DNA from: Paragyromitra xinjiangensis
Lineage: Eukaryota; Ascomycota; Pezizomycetes; Pezizales; Discinaceae
NCBI GenBank assembly: GCA_038503065.1
Contig: JBCAMK010000011.1
Coordinates: 1,550,001 to 1,614,000 of the forward strand
Reading direction: 5' to 3'
Length of the DNA: 64,000 nucleotides
Part shown: positions 1-17,135 of the stretch, in pieces
Position numbering within the stretch: position 1 is the stretch's first letter
Layout: every line of letters begins with the position of its first letter
The notes under the pieces: generated by a model
What the model was told of the DNA's origin: nothing
What the model saw: the letters and a program-made list of their open reading frames with translations, nothing else
Database searches by the model: none
Program-made: the position numbers and the translations under genes

Positions 1-545
1 AGTCAATTCGGCAGTCAATTCGGCAGGATTCGGAGGCTTAAAAACAGCCGATTCGGAGTCTATTCAGGAGTCTATTCAGCAGTCAATTCAGCAGGATTCG
101 GAGTCTATTCGGGAGCCTATTCGGTAGTCAATTCGGAGCCTATTCAGGAGCCTATTCGGAGCCTATTTGGGAGTCGATTCGGAGTCTATTGAGCAGTCAA
201 TTCAGCAGTCAATTCAGCGGGATTCGGAGGCTTAGAAACAGCCGATTCGGAGTCTATTCAGCAGTCAATTCAGCAGTCAATTCAGCAGGATTCGGAGGCT
301 CAGAAACAGCCGATTCGGAGTCGATTCGGAGACTATTTAGGAGCCTATTCAGCAGTCAATTCAGCAGTCAATTCGGAGCCTATTCAGGAGCATATTGAGC
401 AGTTGATTCAGAGCCTATTCGGGAGTCGATTCGGAGTCTATTGAGCAGCCAATTCGGAGTCTATTCAGGAGTCGATTCAGCAGTCGATTCGGAGGCTTAG
501 AAACAGCCGATTCGGAGGCTGCTCGGAAGGCTCTCACGCAGCCGA
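1..545. repeat. 12-bp tandem satellite
   Basis: The stretch is built from variants of a 12-bp unit of the form (C/G)AGYCDATTCRG, for example cagtcaattcag, gagtctattcag and gagcctattcgg. It is interrupted by a longer module ending in gaggcttagaaacagccgattcgg. Because 12 is a multiple of 3, one frame stays open and reads as a repetitive Ser-Gln-Phe-Ser type peptide, which I do not regard as a gene. The array is already under way at base 1, so its left end lies outside the window. Confidence 0.85.
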
Positions 546-3230: not shown

Positions 3231-3645
3231 TGCAGTTTTCTTTTTTGATAATGTGACAGGTCATGCAGCTTTTGCACCAAATGCATTACGAGTGAGTAAA
3301 ATGAATCTCTCTCCTAGTGGAAAACAGCCATGATTACGAGATGGATATTTCAACAATCAAGTTCAAACAATGAACTTTGCTTATGGTGATACCTTAGTTC
3401 CACGAAAATGGCGTGGTGAACCAAAAGGACTGAAACATGTTTTAAGCGAACGTGGTTTGTGGCAAACCAATCTTCGTTTAAAGTGCAAGTATATTGGCTT
3501 GGATGGGAAAGAGCATGATACAAAAATCAGTCATTGCATTGCTTACGACAGGGTCAATGTTGTGCACGTGCATTAATGGCAATACAACCTGATTTTCAAG
3601 CACAGAAAGGGCTGCTGCAAGAAGCTATTGAAAGAGGTGGGCATA
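3231..3645 (+). pseudogene. DDE transposase relic, 5' half (split by element A)
   Basis: This is the first half of a degraded DDE-type transposase of a kind common in fungal genomes and usually left unnamed. Visible blocks in one frame are AVFFFDNVTGHAAFAPNAL (with the probable first catalytic Asp in FDN), MNLSPSGKQP, a TGA stop at 3331-3333, LRDGYF, then GEPKGLKHVLSERGLW. A frameshift near 3540 moves the match to the next frame, reading CCARALMAIQPDFQ and LLQEAIERGGH. The reading breaks exactly at 3646, where CATCAGC of element A begins, and resumes at 11.92 kb. Stop and frameshift indicate it was already decaying or decayed after insertion. Family name unknown to me; homology is from remembered motifs only. 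Confidence 0.75.
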
Positions 3646-4029
3646 CATCAGCAAAAATTGATAAAGCCGCCCTGGCCACCTGGAGGTCTAGGCCGTCGGG
3701 CAGAATGTTACCCTTCTGTTAGGTTGCTGTAGCACCTTAGCGCGCCTGGGAGGCATGGTTTCTAGACCTTTGACCGCCTGGAGGAGGTTGTCTCCTCCTG
3801 AGGCAAGTGGTGTAGTGGGCAGCTTCTGGGCGCAGGTGGTCCCTCACTGCCGCAGTATTTTGGCAGCAGTTCGCCCTGTAGAATGGATATGCACAGTATG
3901 CTTGTAGGGCCTAGAATATCACTTGTATCGCACCAATATCATTGACAATTGCTTTATTTCAAGTATCTATCTATCTATCTATCTATCTATGTATTTATCT
4001 ATCTATGTACAAATATTGAGGGTGCAGCG

Positions 4030-4182
4030 AATCCACTTTATGGGAAAAGCTCAGGCAGTGAATCGACGACCTGCCAGAGGCAGGCAGCGAGTTTACCATG
4101 TGGCAGAAGCGGCGGAAGCTCAGGCAGCAAATCGGCCATATGGTGGAGGAAGCAAAGGCATCAGCAGTGAATTGGCCATATG
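4030..4182. repeat. 40-bp satellite array of element A (left part)
   Basis: A few units of the 40-bp repeat described for the element F array, cut by element B. Confidence 0.75.
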
Positions 4183-4784
4183 CATCAGCAAGAAAAAAAA
4201 GTCGCCCCGACACTTTCTTGTTTTCTGGAAGGCCATATTCCGCACGCCGTGTTTGTGGCCATCCCTAAACCCCAGGAGAGCTGGTCCAAGTGCTGGCCTG
4301 AGTGGGCACAGGCTGCACTACGCTCCTGCCTCCTGGCGCTCGGCTGTGGCCTCCAGCGCCCGGATGTGGCACTTAGCGAAATCCAGCAGGCTGCCCGATC
4401 GATTTTTGTTTCTCTAAGTCCCTGAAAACTCAGGACTTAGCAAAATTCACCTCACCTCCCTCCAGGCACTTAGAGATTTTCAAAAATCTCCAGGTCGCTT
4501 AGTCATCGCTTAGTAGTCGCCATGCCGTCGCCAAAGCAACACCTAATAAGACACCAATCTCCACCTCTCCCTTCCTTCCTACTATTGCTTCCTCCTATTC
4601 CCCCCTATTCTCCCATCCATCCCCTATTCCCTCCCACCCATTCTCAACCTCACTGTACCGCTGACTTCGTGACATTTGGGTTCGAAGTAACGAGCTCTGC
4701 TTGCAAAGAACCTCCCAGGTAACATCTTGATTCCGTTTATTTGACTCCTGCTGATATGCCTCCTAGACTCGCTTTGATCCGCTG

Positions 4785-5496
4785 CTTCTGCTTCCTCTGC
4801 TTCCGCCTAAGCAAGCTCTATATGCTGATCGATTTGCTGCCTGCACTTTATGGTCGATTTGCTGCCTGAGCTTCTGCTACCTCAGTCAATTGATCGATCC
4901 GCTGCCTGAGCTTCCGCCGCCACCTGGAGGTTGTTGATCCGCTGCCAGAGCTTCCTCCGCCTCCACCACATGGTCGATCCGCTGCCTGAGCTTCCGCCGC
5001 CTCCTGCAGGTTGTCGACCTGCTGCCTGAGCTTCCTCCGCCTCTGCCACATGGTCGATCCGCTGCCTGAGCTTCCACCGCCTCCGCCACATGGTCTATCT
5101 GCTGCTACAGCCTCTGCAGCCTCTGCCATATGGTTGATCCGCTGCCTGAGCTTCCGCCGCCTCTTGGAGGTCGTCGATCCGCTGTCCGAGCTTCCTCCGC
5201 CTTTGCCACATGATCAATCCGCTGCTGCAGCCTCCGCCATATGGTCAATTGGCTGCCTGAGCCTCTGCTGCCTCCACCATATGGTCGATCCGCTGCCTGA
5301 GCTTCCTCCGCCTCCGCCACATGGTCAATCCGCTGCTACAGCCTCTGCAGCCTCTGCCATATGGTTGATCCGCTGCCTGAGCTTCCGCCGCCTCTTGGAG
5401 GTCATCAATCCGCTGTCTGAGCTTCCTCCGCCTTTGCCACATGATCAATCCGATGCTGCAGCCTCCGCCATATGGTCAATTGGCTGCCTGAGCCTC
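4785..5496. repeat. 40-bp satellite array of element B (left part)
   Basis: About 18 units of the 40-bp repeat in the orientation gctgcctgagcttc...catatggtcgatc. It is cut by element C at 5497 and resumes at 8550-8940. The box at the unit boundary is variously catatggtc, cacatggtc, caattggtc or ctggaggtcgtc. Confidence 0.85.
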
Positions 5497-5879
5497 CAGC
5501 AGCAAAACAACAGATTGTCGCCCGGTCCGCCCAATGCATCAGGCGCCCCAGGCGGTCTGGGCAGAATATAGCCCTCCCTCAGGCTGTAAATTTTGCCCTT
5601 CACGTCTGGGCGACAGCTTACGAGAGGTCGGCATGGGGACGCCCTAGGTTCAGGAGGCTATTCTCTGGGCGACCACAGAGGGTTGACGAGCGTCTGGAGG
5701 ACAGTGGGGGAGAGCAGTGTGCCCACAGAATCACATTTTCAGCAGGTCACCCTGTGGTCTAGTTTGAATGCTTTTGCCCATATGCTTGTTTACAATTGTT
5801 CTATTATTTCTATATAGCTCGATATGTACATGTATCTGTTCTTCGTATCCAAGGGGTAGGGAGGGAGGGGGGGGGAGCA

Positions 5880-6520
5880 GAGGCAGCGGAGGCTCCTGCA
5901 GCGAATTGACCATATGGCGTAGGCAGCAAAAGCTGCTGCAGCAAATCGATCAATTGACTGAGGCAGCAGAAGCTCAGGCAGCGAATTGACCATATGGCGC
6001 AGGCAGCGAAAGCTGCTGCAGCTGTGGCGGAGGAGGCGGAAGCAGCGGAAGCTCAGGCAGCAGATCGACCATATGGCGCAGGCAGCGGAGGCTGCTGCAG
6101 CGAATTGACCAATTGGCGGAGGCGGAGGAAGCTCAGGCAGCGGATTGACGACCTCCAGGAGGCGGTGGAAGCTCAGTCAGCGGATAGACCATATGGCGGA
6201 GGCAGTGGAGGCTGCAGCAGCGAATCAATCAATTGACTGAGGCAGCGGAAGGTCAGGCAGCGGATCGACCATGTGGTGGAGGCGGCGGAAGCTCAAGCAG
6301 CGAATTGACCATATGGCGCAGGCAGCGGAAGCTGCTGCAGCTGCTGCAGCTGCGGCGGAAGCAGATCGACCATATGGCGCAGGCAGCGGATGCAGCTGCA
6401 TCGAATCGATCAATTGACTGAAGCAGCGGAAGCTCAGGCAGCGAATCGACCATATGGCGCAGGCAGCGGAAGCTCAGGCAGCAGAAGCTCAGGCAGCGGA
6501 TCGACGACCTCCAGGAGGCG
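5880..6520. repeat. 40-bp satellite array of element C (main part)
   Basis: The 40-bp units here run in reverse orientation (cgaattgaccatatggcgca). Element D cuts the array at 6521, and a short remainder follows at 7806-7925. Confidence 0.85.
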
Positions 6521-6695
6521 CATCAGTAAAAAAAAAATTCCACCCAATAGGTACATATTCCGCCCGACCGCCTGGCACACCTGGGTGACACTAGCTGCCT
6601 GCTGCGCTTCCCCCTGGCGCCGCTTGCTGCCTGCAGCGCTTCCGGGCGACCCCCTACCATCCGGCAGCGCTGGGCGGCAGCCTGAGTACTTAGCC

Positions 6696-6738
6696 GAATT
6701 TTGCTAAGTCCCTGAAAACTCGGGACTTAGCAAAATTC
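6696..6738. other. Subterminal hairpin of element D (type-1' end)
   Basis: A perfect 17-bp inverted repeat, GAATTTTGCTAAGTCCC, with a 9-nt loop. The same hairpin, more or less intact, recurs in the type-1 or type-1' end of every copy (near 4415, 8275, 9278, 11690, 12772 and 16545). Confidence 0.8.
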
Positions 6739-7021
6739 ACTTTGTCTCCTGCTAGGCACTGGCACTTAGCGATTTTCAAAAATCTGGAGGTCGCTTAGTC
6801 ATCACTTTGAAGTCGCCAAGTCGTCGCTAAGTCGTTGCCAAAGCAACGCCTAGTAAGACACCAATCTCCACCTCCCCCTATTCCCTCCCGTCCTTCCTGC
6901 TATTGCTTCCCCCTATTCCCTCCCACCCTTTCCTACCTCGCTGTACCAGAGTACTTTGCTAACATCGTGACTTTTAGGCTAGAAGTACTAAGCTCTGCCT
7001 GCAAAGAACCTCCTAGAGGTC

Positions 7022-7440
7022 GTCGATCTGCTGCCTAAGCTTCCTCCGCCTCCGCCATATGGTCGATTCGCTGCCTAAGCTTCCGCTGCCTCAGTCAATT
7101 GATCGATTCGCTGCAGCAGCCTCCGCTGCCTCCGCCAATTGGTCGATTCGCTGCTGCAGCTTCCGCCATATGGTCAATTCGCTGCCTGAGCTTCCTGCGC
7201 CTGCGCCAATAGGTCGATTCGCTGCCTGAGCTTCCGCTGCCTGCGCCATATGGTCTATTCGCTGCTGCAGCTTCCTCCGCTTCCGCCATATGGTCAATTC
7301 TCTGCCTGAACTTCCTGCGCCTGCGCCAATAGGTCGATTCGCTGCCTGAGCTTCCGCTGCCTGCGCCATATGGTCAATTCGCTGCCTGCCTCAGGCAGGT
7401 CGTCAATTCGCTGCTGCAGCTTCCACAGAAGCTAGTTTAG
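7022..7440. repeat. 40-bp satellite array of element D
   Basis: About ten units, with catatggtc, caattggtc and caataggtc boxes. It begins directly after the type-1' end and stops where the type-3 end (agaagctagtttagctg) begins. Confidence 0.85.
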
Positions 7441-8549
7441 CTGTGCCCTCGATATTTGTACATAGATATATAGATAGATACATAGAATAAAGCAATTGTC
7501 AATGATATTGGTTCCATACAAGTGATTCTCAAATACTCTAGGCCCTACAAGCATACTGTGCAAATACATTCTACAGGGCGAACTGCTGCCAAATTCTGCG
7601 GCAGCGAGGGACCACCCATGCCCAGAAGCAGCCGACTACACCACTTGCTACAGGAGGAAACGACCTCCTCCGGGCGGTCAAAGGTCTAGAAACCATGCCT
7701 CCCGGGCGCGCCGAGGTGCTGCAGCAACCTAACAGAAGGGTAACATTCCGCCCGACCGCCCCGACCTCCAGGCGGCCGGGGCGGCTTTATCAATTTTTAC
7801 TGATGCGGCAGAAGCTCGGGAAGCTCAGGAAGCTCAGGCAGCAAATCGACCAGCCAATTGAGCCGCCTCCTGAGCTCGCTTAGGCGGAAGCAGGGAAGCA
7901 GGCAGCCAGCGGAGGCAGAGGAAGCTGAAGCAGCGGATCGAAGCAAGTCTAGAAGGCATATCAGCGTGAGTCAAATAAACAGAATCAAGACGTTACCCAG
8001 CAGGTTCCTTGCAAGCAGAGCTTAGTACTTCGAGCCTAAAAGTCACGATATTAGCAAAGTACTATGGTACAGCGAGGTAGGGTATGGGTGGGAGAGAATA
8101 GGGGATGGGCGGAGGAGTAGGGAATGGGTGGGAGAGAATAGGGGGAAGCAATAGTAGGAAGGACGGGAGAGGTGGAGATTGGTGTCTTATTAGGCGTTGC
8201 TTTGGCGACGGCATGGCCACTACTGAGCGATGACTAAGCGACCTGGAGATTTTTGAAAATCGCTAAGTGCCTGGGTGAATTTTGCTAAGTCCCGAGTTTC
8301 CAGGGACTTAGCAAAATTCGTTGGGTAGAGCCCGCTGGATTTCGCTAAGTGCCACATCCGGACGTGGGTGGTCACAGCTGAGCTGCAGCCGAGCACCAGG
8401 AGGCCAGAGCGTTGTGCAGCCTGCGTCCGCACAGGCAAGCACTTGGACCAGCTCGCCTGGGTTGTAGGGAAGGCCACAAACGCAGTGGGCGGAATATGGC
8501 CTTCCAGAAGCCAAGAAAGTGTCGGGGCGACATTTTTTTTTTGCTGATG

Positions 8550-8940
8550 CTCTGCTGCCTCCACCATATGGTCGATCCACTGCCTGAGCTTCCTCCGCCT
8601 CCGCCACATGGTCAATCCGCTGCCTTAGCTTCCGCCACCTCCACCACAGCAGCAGCAGTCTCCGCTGGCTGCACCATATGGTCAATTCGCTGCCTGAGCT
8701 TCCGCCACCTCCTGGAGGTCGTCAATTTGCTGTCAGAGCTTCCTTCACCTCCGCGAATTGGTCAATTTGCTGCCTGAGCCTCTGCTGCCTCCGCCATATG
8801 GTCGATTCGCTGCAGCAGCCTCTGCTGTCTGCATCATATGGTCGATCAGCTGCCTGAGCTTTCTCCGCCTCAGTCAATTGATCGATTCGCTGCCTGCGCC
8901 ATATAGTCAATTTGCTGCAGGAGCCTCAGCTGCCTCAGCT
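8550..8940. repeat. 40-bp satellite array of element B (right part)
   Basis: This is the continuation of the 4785-5496 array after element C. It ends at a C run (cccccccc) that leads into the type-2 end. Confidence 0.8.
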
Positions 8941-9277
8941 CCCCCCCCATACCCCTAGGATACGAAGAACAGATACATGTACATATAGAGCTATATAGAA
9001 ATAATAGAACAATTGTAAACAAGCATATGGGCAAAAGCATTCAAACTAGACCACAGGGTGACCTGCTGAAAATGTGATTCTGTGGGCGCGCTCATCAGCA
9101 AAAAAAAAAATTGCACCCAATAGGTACATATTCCGCCCGACCGCCTGCCACACCCAGGCGTCACTAGCTGCCTGCTGCGCTTTCCCCAGGCGCTGCTTGC
9201 TGCCTGCAGCGCTTCCAGGCGACCTCCTACCATCCGGCAGCACAGGGCGGCTGCCTGAGTACTTAGCAAATTTTCAA

Positions 9278-9324
9278 GTGAATTTTGCTAAGTCCCTAAA
9301 AACTCGGGACTTAGCAAAATTCAC
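9278..9324. other. Subterminal hairpin of element E (type-1' end)
   Basis: A 19-bp perfect stem (GTGAATTTTGCTAAGTCCC) with a 9-nt loop, the most complete version in the window. Beside it lie GATTTTCAAAAATC and a run of CGCTTAGTC-like motifs (about 9375-9425). This arrangement resembles the subterminal repeats that transposases of some families bind. Confidence 0.8.
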
Positions 9325-9654
9325 TTCTTTTCCTGCCAGGAACCGGCACTAAGCGATTTTCAAAAATTTGGAGGTCGCTTAGTCAACACTTTATAGTCGC
9401 CAAGTCGTCGCTTAGTCGTCGCCAAAGCAATGCCTAGTAAGACACCAATCTCCACCTCCCCCTATTCCTTCCCGTCCTTCCTACTATTGCTTCCCCCTAT
9501 TCCCTCCCACCCATTCACTACCTTGCTGTACCATAGGACTTTGCTAACATCGTGACTTTTAGACCCAAAGTACTAACCTCTGCTTGCAAAGAAACTCCCA
9601 GGTAACGTCTCACTTCCGTTTATATGATTCCCACTGATATGCCTCCTAGACTCG

Positions 9655-10425
9655 CTTTGATCCGCTGCTTCAGCTTCCTCCGCCTCCGCTGGCTGCTTGC
9701 TTCCGCCTAAGCGAGCTCAGCAAGCAGCTCAATTCGCTGCCTGAGCTTCCTCCACCTCTGCCAATTGGTCGATCCGCTGCCTGAGCTTCCGCCGCCTCCT
9801 GGAGGTCGTTGATCCATTGCCTGAGCTTCCTCCGCCTCCGCCATATGGTCAATCCGCTGCCTGAGCTTCAGTTGCCTCAGTCAATTGATCGATTTGCTGC
9901 AGCAGCCTCCGCTGCCTCCACCATACGGTCAATTCGCTGCCTGAGCTCCTGCTTCCTCCGCCATATGGTCAATTCGCTGCCTGAGCTCCTGCTTCCTCCG
10001 CCATATGGTCAATTTGCTGCCTGAGCTTCCGCTGCCTCCGCCACATGGTCAATTCGCTGCCTGAACCTGCGCCTAAGCCTGCGCCTGCGCCAATAGGTCA
10101 ATTGGCTGCCTGAGCTTCCGCTGCCTGCACAATGTGGTCGATTCGCTGCCTGAGCCTGAGCCTGAGCCTGCACCTGCGCCTGCGCCTGTGCCTGAGCCTG
10201 CGCCTGAGCCTGCGCCTGAGCCTGCGCCTGCGCCAATAGGTCAATTCGCTGCCAGAGCTTCCTGCGCCTGCGCCAATAGGTTGATTCACTGCCTGAGCTT
10301 CTGCTGCCTGCGCCAATAGGTCGATTCGCTTCCTGAGCTTCCGCCGCCTCCGCCATATGGTCGATTCGCTGCCTGCCTCTAGCAGGTCGTCGACTCGCTG
10401 CTGCAACTTCTGCAGAAGCTAGTTT
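9655..10425. repeat. 40-bp satellite array of element E
   Basis: About 19 units. At 10149-10232 the unit is replaced by a simple gcctga/gcctgc 6-bp expansion. This local slippage product shows that the arrays change length. Confidence 0.85.
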
Positions 10426-11013
10426 AGCTGCGCCCTCGATATTTGTACATAGATAGATATATAGATAGATACATAGAATAAAGCAATTGTCAATGATATT
10501 GGTTCCATACAAGTGATTCTCGAATATTCCAGGCCCTACTATACAAATCTATTCTACAGGGCGAACTGCTGCCAAAATCCTGCGGCAGCGAGGGACCACA
10601 CGCGTCCAGAAACAGCCTACTACACCACTTGCTACAGGAGGAAACGACCTCCTCCAGGCGGTCAAAAGTCTAGAAACCATGCCTCCAGGGCACGCCGAGA
10701 TGCAGCAGCAACCTAACAGAAAGGTAACATTCCGCCTGACTGCCTAGACCTCCAGGCGGCCAGGGCGGCTTTATCAATTTTTGCTGATGCTGCTCTCCCC
10801 CTGCTGTCTTCTAGACGCTCATCTACCCTCCATGGCCGCCCAGAGAACAGCCTCCTAAACCTCGCGCGCCCCCATGCCAACCTCTAGTAAGCTGTCGCCC
10901 AGAGGTGAAGGGCAAAATTTACAACCTGAGGGAGGGCTATATTCCACCCCGACCGCCCTGGTCGCCTAATGCATTGGGCAGACCAGGAGACATTTCGATT
11001 TTTTGCTGATGTG

Positions 11014-11335
11014 GTGGAAGCTCAGGCAGCGAATCAACCTATTGGCGCAGACAGCGGAAGCTGCAGCAGCGAATCGACCATATGGCGGAGGCAGCGGAGG
11101 CTGGAGCAGCGAATCGATCAATTGGCGGAGGCAGCGGAAGCTTAAGCAGCGAATCAATCAATTGGCGGAGACGGCGGAAGCTCAAGCAGCGAATTGACCA
11201 TATGGCGCAGGCGGTGGAGGCTGCAGAAACGAATCAATCAATTAGCAGAGGCAGCAGAAGCTCAAGCAGCGAATTAATCAGTGAATTAAGCTCGCTTAAG
11301 CAGAAGCAGCGAAGCAGGCAGCCGGCGGAGGCAGG
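11014..11335. repeat. 40-bp satellite array of element A (right part)
   Basis: About eight units, in the orientation cgaatcgaccatatggcgga, continuing the fragment at 4030-4182 after excision of B. Confidence 0.8.
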
Positions 11336-11922
11336 GGAAGCTGAAGCAGCGAATGGAAGCAAGTCTAGGAGGCATATCACCTGGTGTCATATAAACGGAA
11401 GCGAGACGTTACCTAGGAGGTTCTTTGCAAGCAGAGCTTAGTACTTCAAGCCTAAAAGTCACAATGTTAGCAAAGTCCTATGGTACAGCATGGTTGAGAA
11501 TGGGTGGGAGGGAATAGGGGGAAGCAATAGTTGGAAGGGCAGGAAGCAATAGGGGGAGGTGGAGATTGGTGTCTTACTATGCATTGCTTTGGCGATGACT
11601 AAGCGATGACTTGGCGACTACAAAGTGATGACTAAGCGACCTCCAGATTTTTGAAAATCGCTAAGTGCCAGTGCCTGGCAGGACACGAAGTGAATTTTGC
11701 TAAGTCCCCGGTTTTCAGGGACTTAGAAAAAATTCGATCAAAAATTTGCTAAGTACTTGAGCTGCCGCCCAGCGCTACCGGATGGTAGGAGGTCGCCCAG
11801 AAGCGCTCCAGGCAGCAAGTGGCGCCTGGAGAAAGCGCAGCAGGCAGCTAGTGTAGCCTGGGCACAGCAGGCAGCCGGGCGGAATATGTACCTATTGGGC
11901 ACAATTTTTTTTTTGCTGATGC

Positions 11923-12226
11923 TATGGCTTTCTTTTACCCAAAATTTCATCGCAAGTTAAACTTTATTGAATATTACTGGGGTGCTGCAAAGTTTTATAC
12001 TTGTATTAATTGCGCTTATAATATCGCAGCATTACGGATTGTGGTTCCTAAAGCTCTTAAATCAGTATCACCACAGCTCATTTGGTGATAATGGAATAAA
12101 ACTTGTCGAATCATGGATGGCTATCAACAAGGTATAGCATATGGCACAACCGAGTTCAAAAAACACTATAAAAGTCACAGACGAGTGTCAGAACGCAAAA
12201 TTGATGAAACACATCACAGTGCATGA
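11923..12226 (+). pseudogene. DDE transposase relic, 3' half (split by element A)
   Basis: This continues the relic at 3231-3645. Directly after the right end of element A the + strand reads MAFFYPKFHRKLNFIEYYWGA, which is the family block FYPKFH-ELNFIE with the catalytic Glu, followed by AAKFYT. After a TGA and a frameshift it reads RIMDGYQQGIAYG and then KKHYKSHRRVSER, the conserved C-terminal block, and ends at TGA 12224-12226. The residues before and after the insertion fit together as GH-MAFFYP when one TA copy and one extra C are removed. It is convergent with the broken gene at 12339-12518, only about 110 bp away. Confidence 0.75.
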
Positions 12227-12338
12227 AACAACTAGTAGCTGCTCCAATATCAATGATTACAATAGCATAGATGTTAAAATACTACATTCACAGAAAAAAC
12301 AATGTTCAAATCGCATCTCTATCCCTTCAACAAATTTA

Positions 12339-12518
12339 CTACATTCCTGTCAACCTCCTTGCCTCCCTCAACAACATTTGCAGATTATTATTTCTCATAG
12401 TTCCAGCTTCTTCTTCCTCAATTTGCCTCTTCAAGTATGTCATAAACCACAACCAATCAGAATCTTCATCAGCGGTATAAACGGAACAATTGAATAGTGC
12501 AGCAATATCCCACGCGAT
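12339..12518 (-). pseudogene. Broken gene, downstream exon
   Basis: 60 codons including the stop (TAG at 12341-12339), open without interruption, starting IAWDIAALFNCSVYTADEDS and ending LLREARRLTGM. The exon follows an acceptor TACTGTAG at 12526-12519. Element F is inserted 10 bp upstream of the exon, inside what was the intron. The partner exon is at 14530-14772 and is now in the opposite orientation. No family was recognised. Confidence 0.65.
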
Positions 12519-12528
12519 CTACAGTATC

Positions 12529-14529
12529 CATCAGCAAAAAAAAAATGTCGCCCGGACACGTTCTTGTCTTCTGGAAGGCCATATTCCGCCTGCTGCGTTT
12601 GTGGTCTTCCTGCCGGCCCAGGCGAGCTGGTCCGGGTGCTGGCTGCGCCCAAGCGCAGGCTTTGCAGGCCGCGCAGTGCTCCGGCCTCCTGGCACTCGTC
12701 CGCAGCCACCCGTGTCCGGGCGCTGGCACTTAGCAGAATCCAGCCGACTGCCCGATGGATTTTTTTTTTTCTCCAAGTCCCTAGAAACTCGGGACTTAGC
12801 AAAATTCACCTCGACTCCCACCAGGCACTTCGCGATTTTCAAAAATCTCCAGGTCGCTTAGTCATCGCTGAGTAGTCGCCATGCCGTCGCCAAAGCAACG
12901 CCTAATAAGACACCAATCTCCACCTCTCCCGTCCTTCCTACTATTGCTTCCCCCTATTCCCTCCCACCAATCCACAACCTCGCTGTACCGCTGACATCGT
13001 GACATTTAGGATCGAAGCAACGAGCTTTGCTTGCAAAGAACCTCCTAGGTAACGTCTTGATTCCGTTTATTTGACTCCCGCTGATATGCCTCCTAGACTC
13101 GCTTCGATCCGCAGCTTCAGCTTCCTCTGCCTCCGCTGGCTGCCTGCTTCGCTGCTTGCCGAGCTCAGGAGCTTCCTGAGCTTCCACTGCCTCCTGGAGG
13201 TCGTCGATCCGCTGCCTGCGCCATATGGTCGATCCGCTGCCTGAGCTTCCTCCGCCTCCGCCAAATGGTCAATTCGCTGCCTGGGCTTCCGCTGCCTGCG
13301 CCACATGGTCGATCCGCTGCTTGAGCTTCCTCCGCCTCCGCCTCCGCCAATTGGTCGATTCGCTGCCTGAGCTTCCTCCGCTTCCGCCAATTGGTCGATT
13401 TGCTGCTTGAGCTTCCGCTGCCTCCGCCACATGGTCAATTCGCTGCCTGAGCTTCCGCCGCCTCCGCCAATTGGTCGATTTGCTGCTGCTGCCTCCGCTG
13501 CCTGCGCCATATGGTCGATCCGCTGCCTGAGCTTCCGCCGCCTCCTGGAGGTCGTCAATCCGCTGCCTGAGCTTCTGCTGCCTCCTGGAGGTCGTCGATC
13601 CGCTGCCTGAGCTTCCTCCGCCTCCGCCAATTGGTCGATTTGCTGCTGCTGCCTCCGCTGCCTGCGCCATATGGTCGATCCGCTGCTTGAGCTTCCGCCG
13701 CCTCCGCCAATTGGTCGATTTGCTGCTGCTGCCTCCGCTGCCTGCGCCATATGGTCGATTCGCTGCCTGAGCTTCCGCTGCCTCCGCCACATGGTCAATT
13801 CGCTGCAGCAGCCTCCGCTGCCTGCGCCATATGGTCAATTCGCTGCCTGAGCCTCTGGTGCCTCCGCTGACTGAGCCTCCGCCGCCTTCTGGAGGTCGTC
13901 GATCCGCTGCCTGCGCCATATGGTCGATTTGCTGCTGCTGCCTCCGCTGCCTCCGCCACATGGTCAATTCGCTGCCTGAGCTTCCGCTGCCTGCGCCATA
14001 TGGTCAATTCGCAGCCTGAACTTCCGCCGCCTCCGCCACATGGTCAATTCGCTGCAGCAGCCTCCGCTGCCTCCGCCATATGGTCAATTCGCTGCCTGAG
14101 CCTCTGCTGCCTGCGCCATATGGTCGATTCGCTGCTCAACCCCTCCCTACCCGTAGAGTACGAAGAACAGATACATGTACATATGGAACTTTATATATCC
14201 ATAGAAATAATAGAACGATTGTAAACAAGCATATGGGCAAAAGCCTCCAAACTAGACCACAGGGCGACCTGCTGAAAATGTGATTCTGTGGGCGCACTGC
14301 TCTCCTCCAGCTGTCTTCCAGACGCCCATCAACCCCCCATTGTCGCCTGGAAGATAGCCTCCTGAAGCTCAGTGCGCCCTATGCTGGAGAATGACCGACC
14401 TCTGGTAGGTTGTCACCCAGACGCAAAGCGCAAAATTCACAACCTCGGGAAGGGCTATATTCCGCCCCGACCGCCTGGGCCGCCTGAGGCATTGGGCGGA
14501 CCGGGCGACAATCCGTTTTTTTGCTGATG
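12529..14529 (+). mobile_element. Element F (subfamily I), left arm of the inverted pair
   Basis: A 2001-bp element with a type-1 end (catcagcaaaaaaaaaatgt then cgcccgg), a satellite core at about 13100-14145 and a type-2 end finishing cgtttttttgctgatg. Its flanks do not match each other (TC at 12527-12528, AT at 14530-14531), but each matches the flank of element G in the way expected if the DNA between F and G has been inverted. It is nearly identical to G in reverse orientation over the satellite core and type-2 end. Confidence 0.88.
13100..14145. repeat. 40-bp satellite array of element F
   Basis: The array has about 26 units with an exact 40-bp spacing: boxes at 13265 and 13305, then 13351, 13391, 13431, 13471 and 13511, with one 6-bp insertion in between. 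Each unit is gcctgagcttcc, then a GCC/TCC-rich stretch, then a 6-bp palindrome (CATATG, CAATTG or CACATG) and ggtc(a/g)at. Because 40 is not a multiple of 3, the frame rotates and a 40-residue peptide repeat appears on each strand. The long reading frames here are products of the repeat, not supported genes. Confidence 0.9.
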
Positions 14530-14772
14530 ATGGCCAGAGCACAAATAAAGAAGTATGAATAAAATGAATTTCAAACAATATTTGGAGCTCCAGTCATACA
14601 ACATAATCAATCCAACATGCCTCCTTTCTGTACAATCCGTATTGATCCAAAACAACATCATTTAGCCAATTTTGCTGCCTGGTCTACCGTGTATCGGAAA
14701 TTTCCTCAAAATCTCACATATAACATGCAAATCTGGAGCTGGCGATTCTGGGCATTTGTTAATGAACCAGAG
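14530..14772 (+). pseudogene. Broken gene, upstream exon, now inverted between F and G
   Basis: 81 codons starting ATGGCCAGAGCA (MARAQIKKYE), then a TAA at codon 11, then an open frame through GAPVIQHNQSNMPPFCTIRI, YRKFPQNLTYNMQIW and WRFWAFVNEPE. A donor GTTAGT follows at 14773, with TAACTAAC as a branch site. When the spacer is flipped, this donor and the acceptor at 12526-12519 form a 52-nt intron joining two phase-0 exons. One nonsense codon suggests it is dead, or that the true start lies further upstream. The product is unknown. 'WRFWAFVNEPE' is the most distinctive segment for a search. Confidence 0.65.
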
Positions 14773-14816
14773 GTTAGTCAAGTTATTTCCCTGATATCTG
14801 GTAACTAACCTTCTGA

Positions 14817-16814
14817 CATCAGCAAAAAAACGGATTGTCGCCCGGTCCGCCCAATGCCTCAGGCGGCCCAGGCGGTCGGGGCGGAATATAGCCCTTCCCG
14901 AGGTTGTGAATTTTGCGCTTTGCGTCTGGGCGACAACCTACCAGAGGTCGGTCATTCTCCAGCATAGGGCGCACTGAGCTTCAGGAGGCTATCTTCCAGG
15001 CGACAATGGGGGGTTGATGGGCGTCTGGAAGACAGCTGGAGGAGAGCAGTGCGCCCACAGAATCACATTTTCAGCAGGTCGCCCTGTGGTCTAGTTAGGA
15101 GGCTTTTGCCCATATGCTTGTTTACAATCGTTCTATTATTTCTATGGATATATAAAGTTCCATATGTACATGTATCTGTTCTTCGTACTCTACGGGTAGG
15201 GAGGGGTTGAGCAGCGAATCGACCATATGGCGCAGGCAGCAGAGGCTCAGGCAGCGAATTGACCATATGGCGGAGGCAGCGGAGGCTGCTGCAGCGAATT
15301 GACCATGTGGCGGAGGCGGCGGAAGTTCAGGCTGCGAATTGACCATATGGCGCAGGCAGCGGAAGCTCAGGCAGCGAATTGACCATGTGGCGGAGGCAGC
15401 GGAGGCAGCAGCAGCAAATCGACCATATGGCGCAGGCAGCGGATCGACGACCTCCAGGAGGCGGCGGAGGCTCAGTCAGCGGAGGCACCAGAGGCTCAGG
15501 CAGCAAATTGACCATATGGCGCAGGCAGCGGAGGCTGCTGCAGCGAATTGACCATGTGGCGGAGGCAGCGGAAGCTCAGGCAGCGAATCGACCATATGGC
15601 GCAGGCAGCGGAGGCAGCAGCAGCAAATCGACCAATTGGCGGAGGCGGCGGAAGCTCAGGCAGCGGATCGACCATATGGCGCAGGCAGCGGAGGCAGCAG
15701 CAGCAAATCGACCAATTGGCGGAGGCGGAGGAAGCTCAGGCAGCGGATCGACGACCTCCAGGAGGCAGCAGAAGCTCAGGCAGTGGATTGACGACCTCCA
15801 GGAGGCGGCGGAAGCTCAGGCAGCGGATCGACCATATGGCGCAGGCAGCGGAGGCAGCAGCAGCAAATCGACCAATTGGCGGAGGCGGTGGAAGCTCAGG
15901 CAGCGAATTGACCATGTGGTGGAGGCAGCGGAAGCTCAAGCAGCAAATCGACCAATTGGCGGAAGCGGAGGAAGCTCAGGCAGCGAATCGACCAATTGGC
16001 AGAGGCGGAGGCGGAGGAAGCTCAAGCAGCGGATCGACCATGTGGCGCAGGCAGCGGAAGCCCAGGCAGCGAATTGACCATTTGGCGGAGGCGGAGGAAG
16101 CTCAGGCAGCGGATCGACCATATGGCGCAGGCAGCGGATCGACGACCTCCAGGAGGCAGTGGAAGCTCAGGAAGCTCCTGAGCTCGCTTAGGCGGAAGCA
16201 GCGAAGCAGGCAGCCAGCGGAGGCAGAGGAAGCTGAAGCTGCGGATCGAAGCGAGGCTAGGAAGCATATCGGCGGGAGTCAAATAAACGGAATCAAGACG
16301 TTACCTGGAGGTTCTTTGCAGCAAGCTCGTTGCTTCGATCCTAAATGTCACGATGTCAGCGGTACAGCGAGGTTGTGGATTGGTGGGAGGAATAGGGGAA
16401 GCAATAGTAGGAAGGACGGGAGAGGTGGAGATTGGTGTCTTATTAGGCGTTGCTTTGGCGACGGCATGGCGACTACTCAGCGATGACTAAGCGACCTGGA
16501 GATTTTTGAAAATCGCGAAGTGCCTGGTGGGAGTCGAGGTGAATTTTGCTAAGTCCCGAGTTTCTGCGACTTGGAGAAAAAAAATCCATCGGAGTCGGCG
16601 AGGATTCTGCCAGAAGTCTGCCGCCCGGACACGGTGGCTGCGGACGAGTGCTGGAGGCCGGGAAAGACTGCGCGGCTGCAAAGCTCTGACTTGGGCGCAG
16701 CCAGCACCCGGACCAGCTCGCCTGGGCCGGCAGGAAGACCACAAACGCAGCAGGCGGAATATGGCCTTCCAGAAGACAAGAACGTGTCCGGGCGACAATT
16801 TTTTTTTGCTGATG
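14817..16814 (-). mobile_element. Element G (subfamily I), right arm of the inverted pair
   Basis: A 1998-bp inverted copy of F, starting catcagcaaaaaaacggatt (type-2 end) and finishing with a type-1 end, ttttttttgctgatg. Flanks are GA (14815-14816) and AT (16815-16816). Between about 16290 and 16680 it has a cluster of small deletions relative to F, many in G or A runs, while the rest is almost identical. The deletions could be real decay or assembly error in a palindromic region. Confidence 0.88.
15195..16235. repeat. 40-bp satellite array of element G
   Basis: This mirrors the element F array with almost identical unit order. It yields a + strand frame of about 312 codons from 15548, which I treat as repeat-derived. 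Confidence 0.9.
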
Positions 16815-16933
16815 ATCTATATATCTCTTCTATTTACTTGTCTCTCTGTTCCATGTGTCTCTCTCTATTCTGTGTCTACTAACTACTATAGATCAGGGCT
16901 GTCCCCTTCTTGTCTTTCTGGCCCCGACGAGGA

Positions 16934-16992
16934 AGTCCGGCAGCTCGTGAAAGTCCGGCAGCTCGTGAAAGTCCGGCAGCTCGTGAAAGTCC
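16934..16992. repeat. 18-bp tandem repeat
   Basis: Three full copies and a partial copy of agtccggcagctcgtgaa. On the minus strand the unit reads as an in-frame hexapeptide repeat (DFHELP) within a short open stretch that ends in TGA just before 16,900. It lies upstream of the broken gene in that gene's orientation, but no link to the gene is proven. Confidence 0.8.
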
Positions 16993-17135
16993 ACAAGCGT
17001 TGTGAACTGGGGAACGAAGCCCTTTCTTTATACTTGAATAGGGGGTTCCAAGTGTGTTCTCACATCAATCCTGTCTTGTTCCCTAACCCATACCCAATTC
17101 ACCCACCCGCAATCAAAGCTAATGTTAGTGCTTTA

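What the first reader, a model, noticed from the sequence alone, without database searches (positions are those of the whole stretch)
3646..11921. Five-element nest with every insertion resolved by its 2-bp duplication
Each CATCAG...CTGATG boundary can be paired: A (3646-11921, TA), B (4183-11011, TG), C (5497-8549, CT), D (6521-7805, CG) and E (9093-10789, CT). Excising them in the order D, C, E, B, A restores an uninterrupted satellite unit or element end each time, and finally the DDE relic reading frame. Two junctions (A right, C left) carry one extra C. The family therefore inserts repeatedly into its own copies, mostly into the satellite core, which would make the core both the body of the element and its preferred landing site. 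The restored host frame (GH-MAFFYPKF) independently supports the outermost boundary.
Basis: seen in the sequence. Interest (0 to 1): 0.88.

Follow-up and report, generated by a model that had tools for sequence, protein, structure and literature searches.

The report
Nested jumping genes with satellite cores
Seven small, non-coding jumping genes of a known fungal transposon group (Plavaka), each carrying its own block of short repeats, landed in the ruin of an older jumping gene, four of them one inside another, and the tiny duplications each landing left behind let the order of events be read back.

Summary
The nest is real: all five segments are bounded as stated, a join test recovers each empty site, and three paralogues show the host continuous across A. 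Corrections: C has a 3-bp duplication (CTC/CTC), not CT plus an extra C; A is best read as 3 bp with one mismatch. The segments form two families: I (A, D, E) and II (B, C). Two more family II copies (F, G) sit in the same host and have inverted 287 bp of it. Ends CATCAG..CTGATG with 2-3 bp duplications match PlavakaB (PMC12730594). Plavaka elements of about 9 kb with the same ends exist for both families and lack the 40-bp array; that cargo rides on two end sets, probably after one swap. 'Preferred landing site' is only partly upheld: 0 of 54 sampled copies elsewhere lie in a satellite element, yet about 3% of ends genome-wide abut a core, 7-12 times the uniform expectation; tolerance in transposon-rich DNA may explain this as well as targeting. 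A new variant of a known kind; modest interest.

The parts
3231..3645 (+). host DDE transposon relic, part 1, ends in target ATA
   Evidence: collinear with L069-L071; 7 matches in the genome, itself included
3646..11921 (+). A: family I satellite element (end type 1 left, type 2 right), own sequence about 1.45 kb, duplication ATA/CTA
4183..11011 (-). B: family II element (type 3 left, type 4 right) in A's satellite units, own sequence about 2.07 kb, duplication TG
5497..8549 (+). C: family II element (type 4 left, type 3 right) in B's core, own sequence about 1.77 kb, duplication CTC/CTC; left end CAGCAG
6521..7805 (-). D: family I element, 1285 bp, at the edge of C's core, duplication CG
9093..10789 (-). 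E: family I element, 1697 bp, in B's type-4 arm (not core), duplication CT
4850..5496 (.). 40-bp satellite core of B, first part
8557..8859 (.). 40-bp satellite core of B, second part
5880..6482 (.). 40-bp satellite core of C
7022..7388 (.). 40-bp satellite core of D
9729..10375 (.). 40-bp satellite core of E
11016..11354 (.). 40-bp satellite core of A, part right of B
11925..12528 (+). host DDE transposon, part 2 (end of the DDE frame, then downstream region)
12529..14529 (-). F: family II element, 2001 bp (core 13208-14135); duplication TC once the spacer is flipped
14530..14816 (-). 287-bp piece of the host, inverted between F and G
   Evidence: matches three paralogues only on the opposite strand; flipped, the host is collinear over 726 bp
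14817..16814 (+). G: family II element, 1998 bp (core 15211-16138), inverted relative to F; duplication AT after flipping
   Evidence: inner 1.4 kb 98.5-100% identical to F, outer 600 bp 83-96%
16817..17000 (+). host transposon continues

Best explanation
The locus is one copy of an old DDE transposon hit at least seven times by non-autonomous PlavakaB-type elements: A, F and G entered the host, B entered A, C and E entered B, D entered C. Each element is a pair of Plavaka ends (12-bp inverted ends CATCAGCAAAAA, or a close variant, plus about 50-140 bp shared with a full Plavaka) around foreign cargo whose middle is a 40-bp tandem array. A Plavaka transposase made elsewhere would recognise the ends, cut the element out and insert it with a 2- or 3-bp staggered cut, leaving the duplication (inferred from ends, duplications and partners; not assayed). 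Family I ends match the Plavaka at C1:1659341-1668416, family II ends the Plavaka at C2:2817033-2826347. The array has no shown part in movement; it is carried cargo, now on two end sets, probably after a single swap. Nesting arises mostly because insertions accumulate and survive in transposon-rich DNA (inferred). Later F and G recombined as inverted repeats and flipped the host DNA between them.
For: Join test and host collinearity. 22 of 24 facing pairs with a 2-bp duplication; the 23 pairs of matching end type are 1+2, 3+4, 8a+8b, 9a+9b or 7+7. Published PlavakaB termini CATCA..TGATG with 2 or 3 bp duplications (PMC12730594, passages). Full Plavaka elements with the same ends: C1, 92 bp at 96% to D at one end and 70 bp at 84% to D (54 bp at 91% to E) at the other, duplication TC; C2, 103-141 bp and 82-95 bp at 79-88%, duplication GA; PF18759 in both. 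No 40-bp array inside either: none at C1; at C2 the 40-bp arrays flank the element. Families I and II are 76-96% identical over the shared arm columns, 41-53% over the terminal arms; a 59-row tree of the shared arm parts the families by one branch, support 100/99. Inversion.
Against: No transposition was observed. C1:2022231-2024121 (L018) and L022 have matching end types but flanks TCA/TAA and TAG/TAC. About 300 bp of the family I type-1 arm (E 1288-1605) occurs in neither Plavaka found, so the true partner may be another copy. The excess of ends in cores is more than tolerance alone need give. One assembly only; no reads were available.
Confidence: 0.87

Rival explanations
1. The satellite core is a true landing pad: Plavaka transposase complexes are drawn to the 40-bp array (for example because it holds transposase-binding sites), so elements seed further insertions into themselves.
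For: 3 of 4 nested insertions here are in satellite units; the 9.3-kb family II Plavaka itself sits in a core; 3 of 54 sampled elements hold a foreign CATCAG end in the core; 13 of 20 core-word junctions look like core, 1.1-1.9 expected.
Against: 0 of 54 sampled insertions outside the window are in a satellite element while 5 of 54 are in Plavaka bodies; by eye the breakpoints fall at many places in the unit; no 40-bp array was found in the two coding partners.
Confidence: 0.2
2. Plain transposon graveyard: insertions are uniform or regionally biased and survive where they do no harm, so nests form without sequence targeting.
For: Of 54 sampled flanks 5 are Plavaka bodies and others match repeats in further loci; by eye the listed copies cluster in stretches of some contigs.
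Against: Core density in the 1.5-kb flanks of sampled copies is only 0.41%, which still leaves a 7-fold excess; that density rests on 4 word matches.
Confidence: 0.6
3. F-spacer-G is one long foldback element inserted with a 3-bp duplication ATC.
For: ATC stands on both outer sides; the arms are 99% complementary over 1370 bp.
Against: The spacer is host sequence: three paralogues hold it between the same flanks in the opposite orientation.
Confidence: 0.03
4. The nest is an assembly artefact of repeats.
For: Repeat-rich region, one assembly.
Against: Duplications, host collinearity and end-type pairing agree; an artefact would not be expected to restore five target sites.
Confidence: 0.02

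Closest known systems
PlavakaB DNA transposons of fungi (Kojima 2025, PMC12730594, passages read; PF18759)
   Same: ends CATCA..TGATG, 2 or 3 bp duplications, Plavaka transposase in partners with the same ends
   Different: these copies are non-coding, 1.3-2.1 kb, with a 40-bp satellite core; in that paper's main text 'satellite' and 'nested' do not occur and 'non-autonomous' occurs once, of TET genes (supplements not seen)
Cg_HINE non-autonomous Helentrons of oyster (PMC7492417, abstract read)
   Same: satellite-like central repeats combined with different flanking modules and dispersed by transposition
   Different: Helentrons, another kind of transposon; here cut-and-paste-type ends with target duplications
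Tetris foldback element and DAIBAM of Drosophila (PMC4079207, abstract read)
   Same: non-autonomous, internal tandem repeats, relatives sharing terminal portions; DAIBAM implicated in inversions
   Different: Tetris repeats lie within its inverted ends; here the inverted ends are about 12 bp and the array is internal
CACTA-like Jozin and the Chenopodium satellite (PMC7320549, abstract read)
   Same: a CACTA-like (by PMC12730594 related) transposon linked to an about 40-bp satellite
   Different: there the monomer comes from the transposase gene; here neither Plavaka gave a significant match to the array

Membership tests
PlavakaB | termini 5'-CATCA..TGATG-3' | tested here: met
   (854 CATCAGCAAAA, reversed control 17); C's left end is CAGCAG
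PlavakaB | 2 or 3 bp target duplication | tested here: met
   22 of 24 pairs 2 bp; 21 of 23 loci; C 3 bp
PlavakaB | Plavaka transposase (PF18759) in an element with the same ends | tested here: met
   C1 and C2 elements
PlavakaB | C(2)C and H(3-4)H motifs between second D and last E | tested here: inconclusive
   CPVC and HLLTH seen by eye in the C1 translation; not aligned formally
PlavakaB | place in the PlavakaB clade of a transposase tree | not tested
   no tree with reference families built
CACTA/EnSpm sensu stricto | termini CAC..GTG and 3 bp duplication | tested here: not met
   ends are CAT; mostly 2 bp
KDZ/Zisupton | 8 bp target duplication and KDZ transposase | tested here: not met
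   2-3 bp; one KDZ match in the genome, its ends not examined
Foldback (Tetris-like) | long terminal inverted repeats | tested here: not met
   by eye the two ends of each element share only about 12 bp
MITE | short (under about 0.8 kb, recalled) non-coding element | tested here: not met
   1.3-2.1 kb; 247-249 bp elements with the same ends exist

The most novel reading that the evidence does not exclude
Plavaka-derived elements carry a 40-bp array that both spreads with them and attracts further Plavaka insertions, so the element builds its own harmless landing ground and the two families feed on each other's cores.
Probability: 0.15. Interest if true: 0.62.

Novelty: new variant of a known kind. 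Interest (0 to 1): 0.42.

Why it matters
It gives Plavaka, a little-studied group (11 papers in the library hold the word), two matched pairs of coding partner and non-coding derivative in one genome, shows one satellite cargo on two different sets of ends, and catches an inversion made by two copies with both duplications and a conversion-like tract still readable. Whether cores attract insertions is a clear, testable question about how dispersed satellites spread.

Tried and rejected
Pattern CATCAGN{0,30}CTGATG was too loose (93 per strand, control 46) and was dropped. KDZ as the source group: one match only. F-spacer-G as one foldback element: rejected by paralogues. L066 and L067 were fetched as possible partners; each holds a satellite element inserted in or beside a Plavaka gene. 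Rfam: 0 matches at gathering threshold in the window. Host protein: DDE_3 only below its cut-off (18.9 bits vs 28.6). Core versus arm from sampled loci: not decidable, because the queries demanded an intact left arm. So: a fungus, perhaps a Pezizomycete. Papers: PMC12730594 and PMC8290104 passages (the latter says Plavaka inverted ends of Marasmius are in its supplement, not seen); PMC4079207, PMC7320549, PMC7492417 abstracts; the rest search listings only. In these listings I saw no report of satellite-cored Plavaka; I did not open the other Plavaka papers.
Full report
OBSERVATION. The window is G000:C11:1550001-1614000 of a 48.2-Mb genome in 22 contigs. All five segments are bounded as stated. 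Comparing each join, with 0 to 7 bases dropped, to uninterrupted relatives outside the nest gives the best two-sided match at 3 bases for A and C and 2 for B, D and E (C least sharply). C is therefore a 3-bp duplication CTC/CTC. A is ATA/CTA, and dropping those 3 bases makes the host collinear with three paralogues and restores GH-MAFFY-PKFH.

TWO FAMILIES. The ends fall into four types that share CATCAGCAAAAA or a close variant (CATCAGTAAAAA in D, CATCAGCAAGAA in B left, CAGCAGCAAAAC in C left). A, D and E carry types 1 and 2 (family I); B, C, F and G carry types 3 and 4 (family II). One search counted 435 ends with its pattern (reversed control 2) and listed 100; among these 24 adjacent facing pairs under 6 kb occur, 22 with a 2-bp duplication (1.5 expected). 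Of the two exceptions one pairs unlike types (6/8a) and one (1+2, C1:2022231-2024121) reads TCA/TAA. Of 23 sampled loci outside the window that hold both ends, 21 have a 2-bp duplication; L018 (the same C1 copy) and L022 (TAG/TAC) do not. The 11-mer CATCAGCAAAA occurs 854 times, reversed control 17.

WHAT IT IS. PMC12730594 gives PlavakaB ends as CATCA..TGATG with 2 or 3 bp duplications (passages). The genome has 125 PF18759 matches (123 of 168 candidates scored). At C1:1659341-1668416 a 9.1-kb Plavaka has a type 1 end (92 bp, 96% to D) and a type 2 end (70 bp, 84% to D; 54 bp, 91% to E), duplication TC. At C2:2817033-2826347 a 9.3-kb Plavaka has type 3 and 4 ends, duplication GA, and lies inside a satellite core. 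Both code for the Plavaka domain in two frames split by one stop codon, and for a second large frame on the other strand. No 40-bp array was found within either: C1; at C2 the 40-bp arrays lie outside the ends, though that element has 56- and 148-bp repeats of its own.

CARGO. In one alignment of the window copies (E against F), the shared arm columns 200-700 are 76-96% identical between families; the array columns 700-1800 are 59-88% (alignment of tandem repeats is loose there); columns 100-200 and 1800-2200 are 41-53%. A tree of 59 shared arms (of 61 extracted; two too short) parts the families by one branch, 100/99; it is unrooted, and one family I row (L033) lies next to family II. The plain reading is a single transfer of the cargo from one set of Plavaka ends to another. 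Of 1457 genome-wide matches to an 11-base core word (control 23) the places listed are all on C1 + strand; apart from three lone matches they lie in clusters the size of single elements. I saw no free satellite array there; the rest was not checked.

DOES IT PREFER ITS OWN CORES? Of 60 sampled ends (the 30 best of each family), 57 have no kin at the flank by nucleotide; the three are E and D of this window and L022, in a Plavaka body. I then set aside five window loci and L052 (its match lacks the end). Of the remaining 54, none is in a satellite element, 4 are in Plavaka coding sequence, and L022 makes 5. Three of these 54 elements have a foreign CATCAG end in their core (L017, L034, L064). 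Genome-wide junction patterns gave 11 and 9 hits; by eye 13 are core (one is B), 3 unclear, 4 not. With core about 119 kb (0.25% of the genome), pattern sensitivity 0.53 and 854 ends, 1.1 are expected, or 1.9 using core density in local flanks (0.41%, from only 4 word matches in 81 kb): a 7-12 fold excess, some 2.9% of ends. This is an excess over uniform insertion, but both ends of one insertion can count twice, and tolerance and clustering are not excluded.

INVERSION. F and G look like a foldback pair with ATC on both sides. The 287-bp spacer matches three paralogues of the host only on the opposite strand; once flipped, the host is collinear over 726 bp (64%) with L074 and over 602 and 696 bp with L076 and L075, and the duplications become TC/TC and AT/AT. 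F and G are 98.5-100% identical over the 1.4 kb next to the spacer and 83-96% over the outer 600 bp, as a crossover with conversion would leave. So A, F and G all lie in one host copy.

MECHANISM. Shown: boundaries, duplications, nesting order, end sharing with two coding Plavaka elements, shared cargo, inversion. Inferred: mobilisation in trans by those or similar Plavakas, a single cargo swap, and survival in transposon-rich DNA as the main cause of nesting.

VERDICT. Members of a known group (PlavakaB) in a variant form: non-coding, satellite-cored, two end sets on one cargo, cross-nested. Interest 0.42.

Noticed in passing
window 12529-16814: F and G, two family II copies, have inverted 287 bp of host DNA between them; both target duplications reappear when the spacer is flipped.
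   Followed up: yes
G000:C1:3014761-3015007, C4:16544-16790, C2:2990031-2990279, C2:3041886-3042134, C5:514951-515199: Short families of 247 and 249 bp with the same CATCAGCAAAAA ends and 2-bp duplications.
   Followed up: partly
L067 position 560; L017 internal position 1145: Another Plavaka-type end, CATCAGCAAAAAATATATGTCC; one lies in the satellite core of L017.
   Followed up: partly
G000:C1:2601042/2601043: Two CATCAG ends abut with no base between them (CTGATG then CATCAG).
   Followed up: no
L068:4369-4371 and L073:3560-3562: A single in-frame stop at the same place in both Plavaka transposases, and one TAG in many PF18759 matches; probably the acceptor of a short intron of 3n length (inferred).
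   Followed up: no
L025, L027, L056, L009, L072: The flanks of L025 and L027 match repeats in L056, L009 and L072; L072 carries a retrotransposon gag-like frame (name recalled, not searched).
   Followed up: no
L073:760-1346: 56- and 148-bp tandem repeats inside the family II Plavaka, unrelated in period to the 40-bp array.
   Followed up: no
window 16933-16992: 18-bp unit repeated 3.3 times without mismatch in the host transposon's end region.
   Followed up: no
window 1-517: Diverged tandem array with 12, 35 and 68 bp periods.
   Followed up: no
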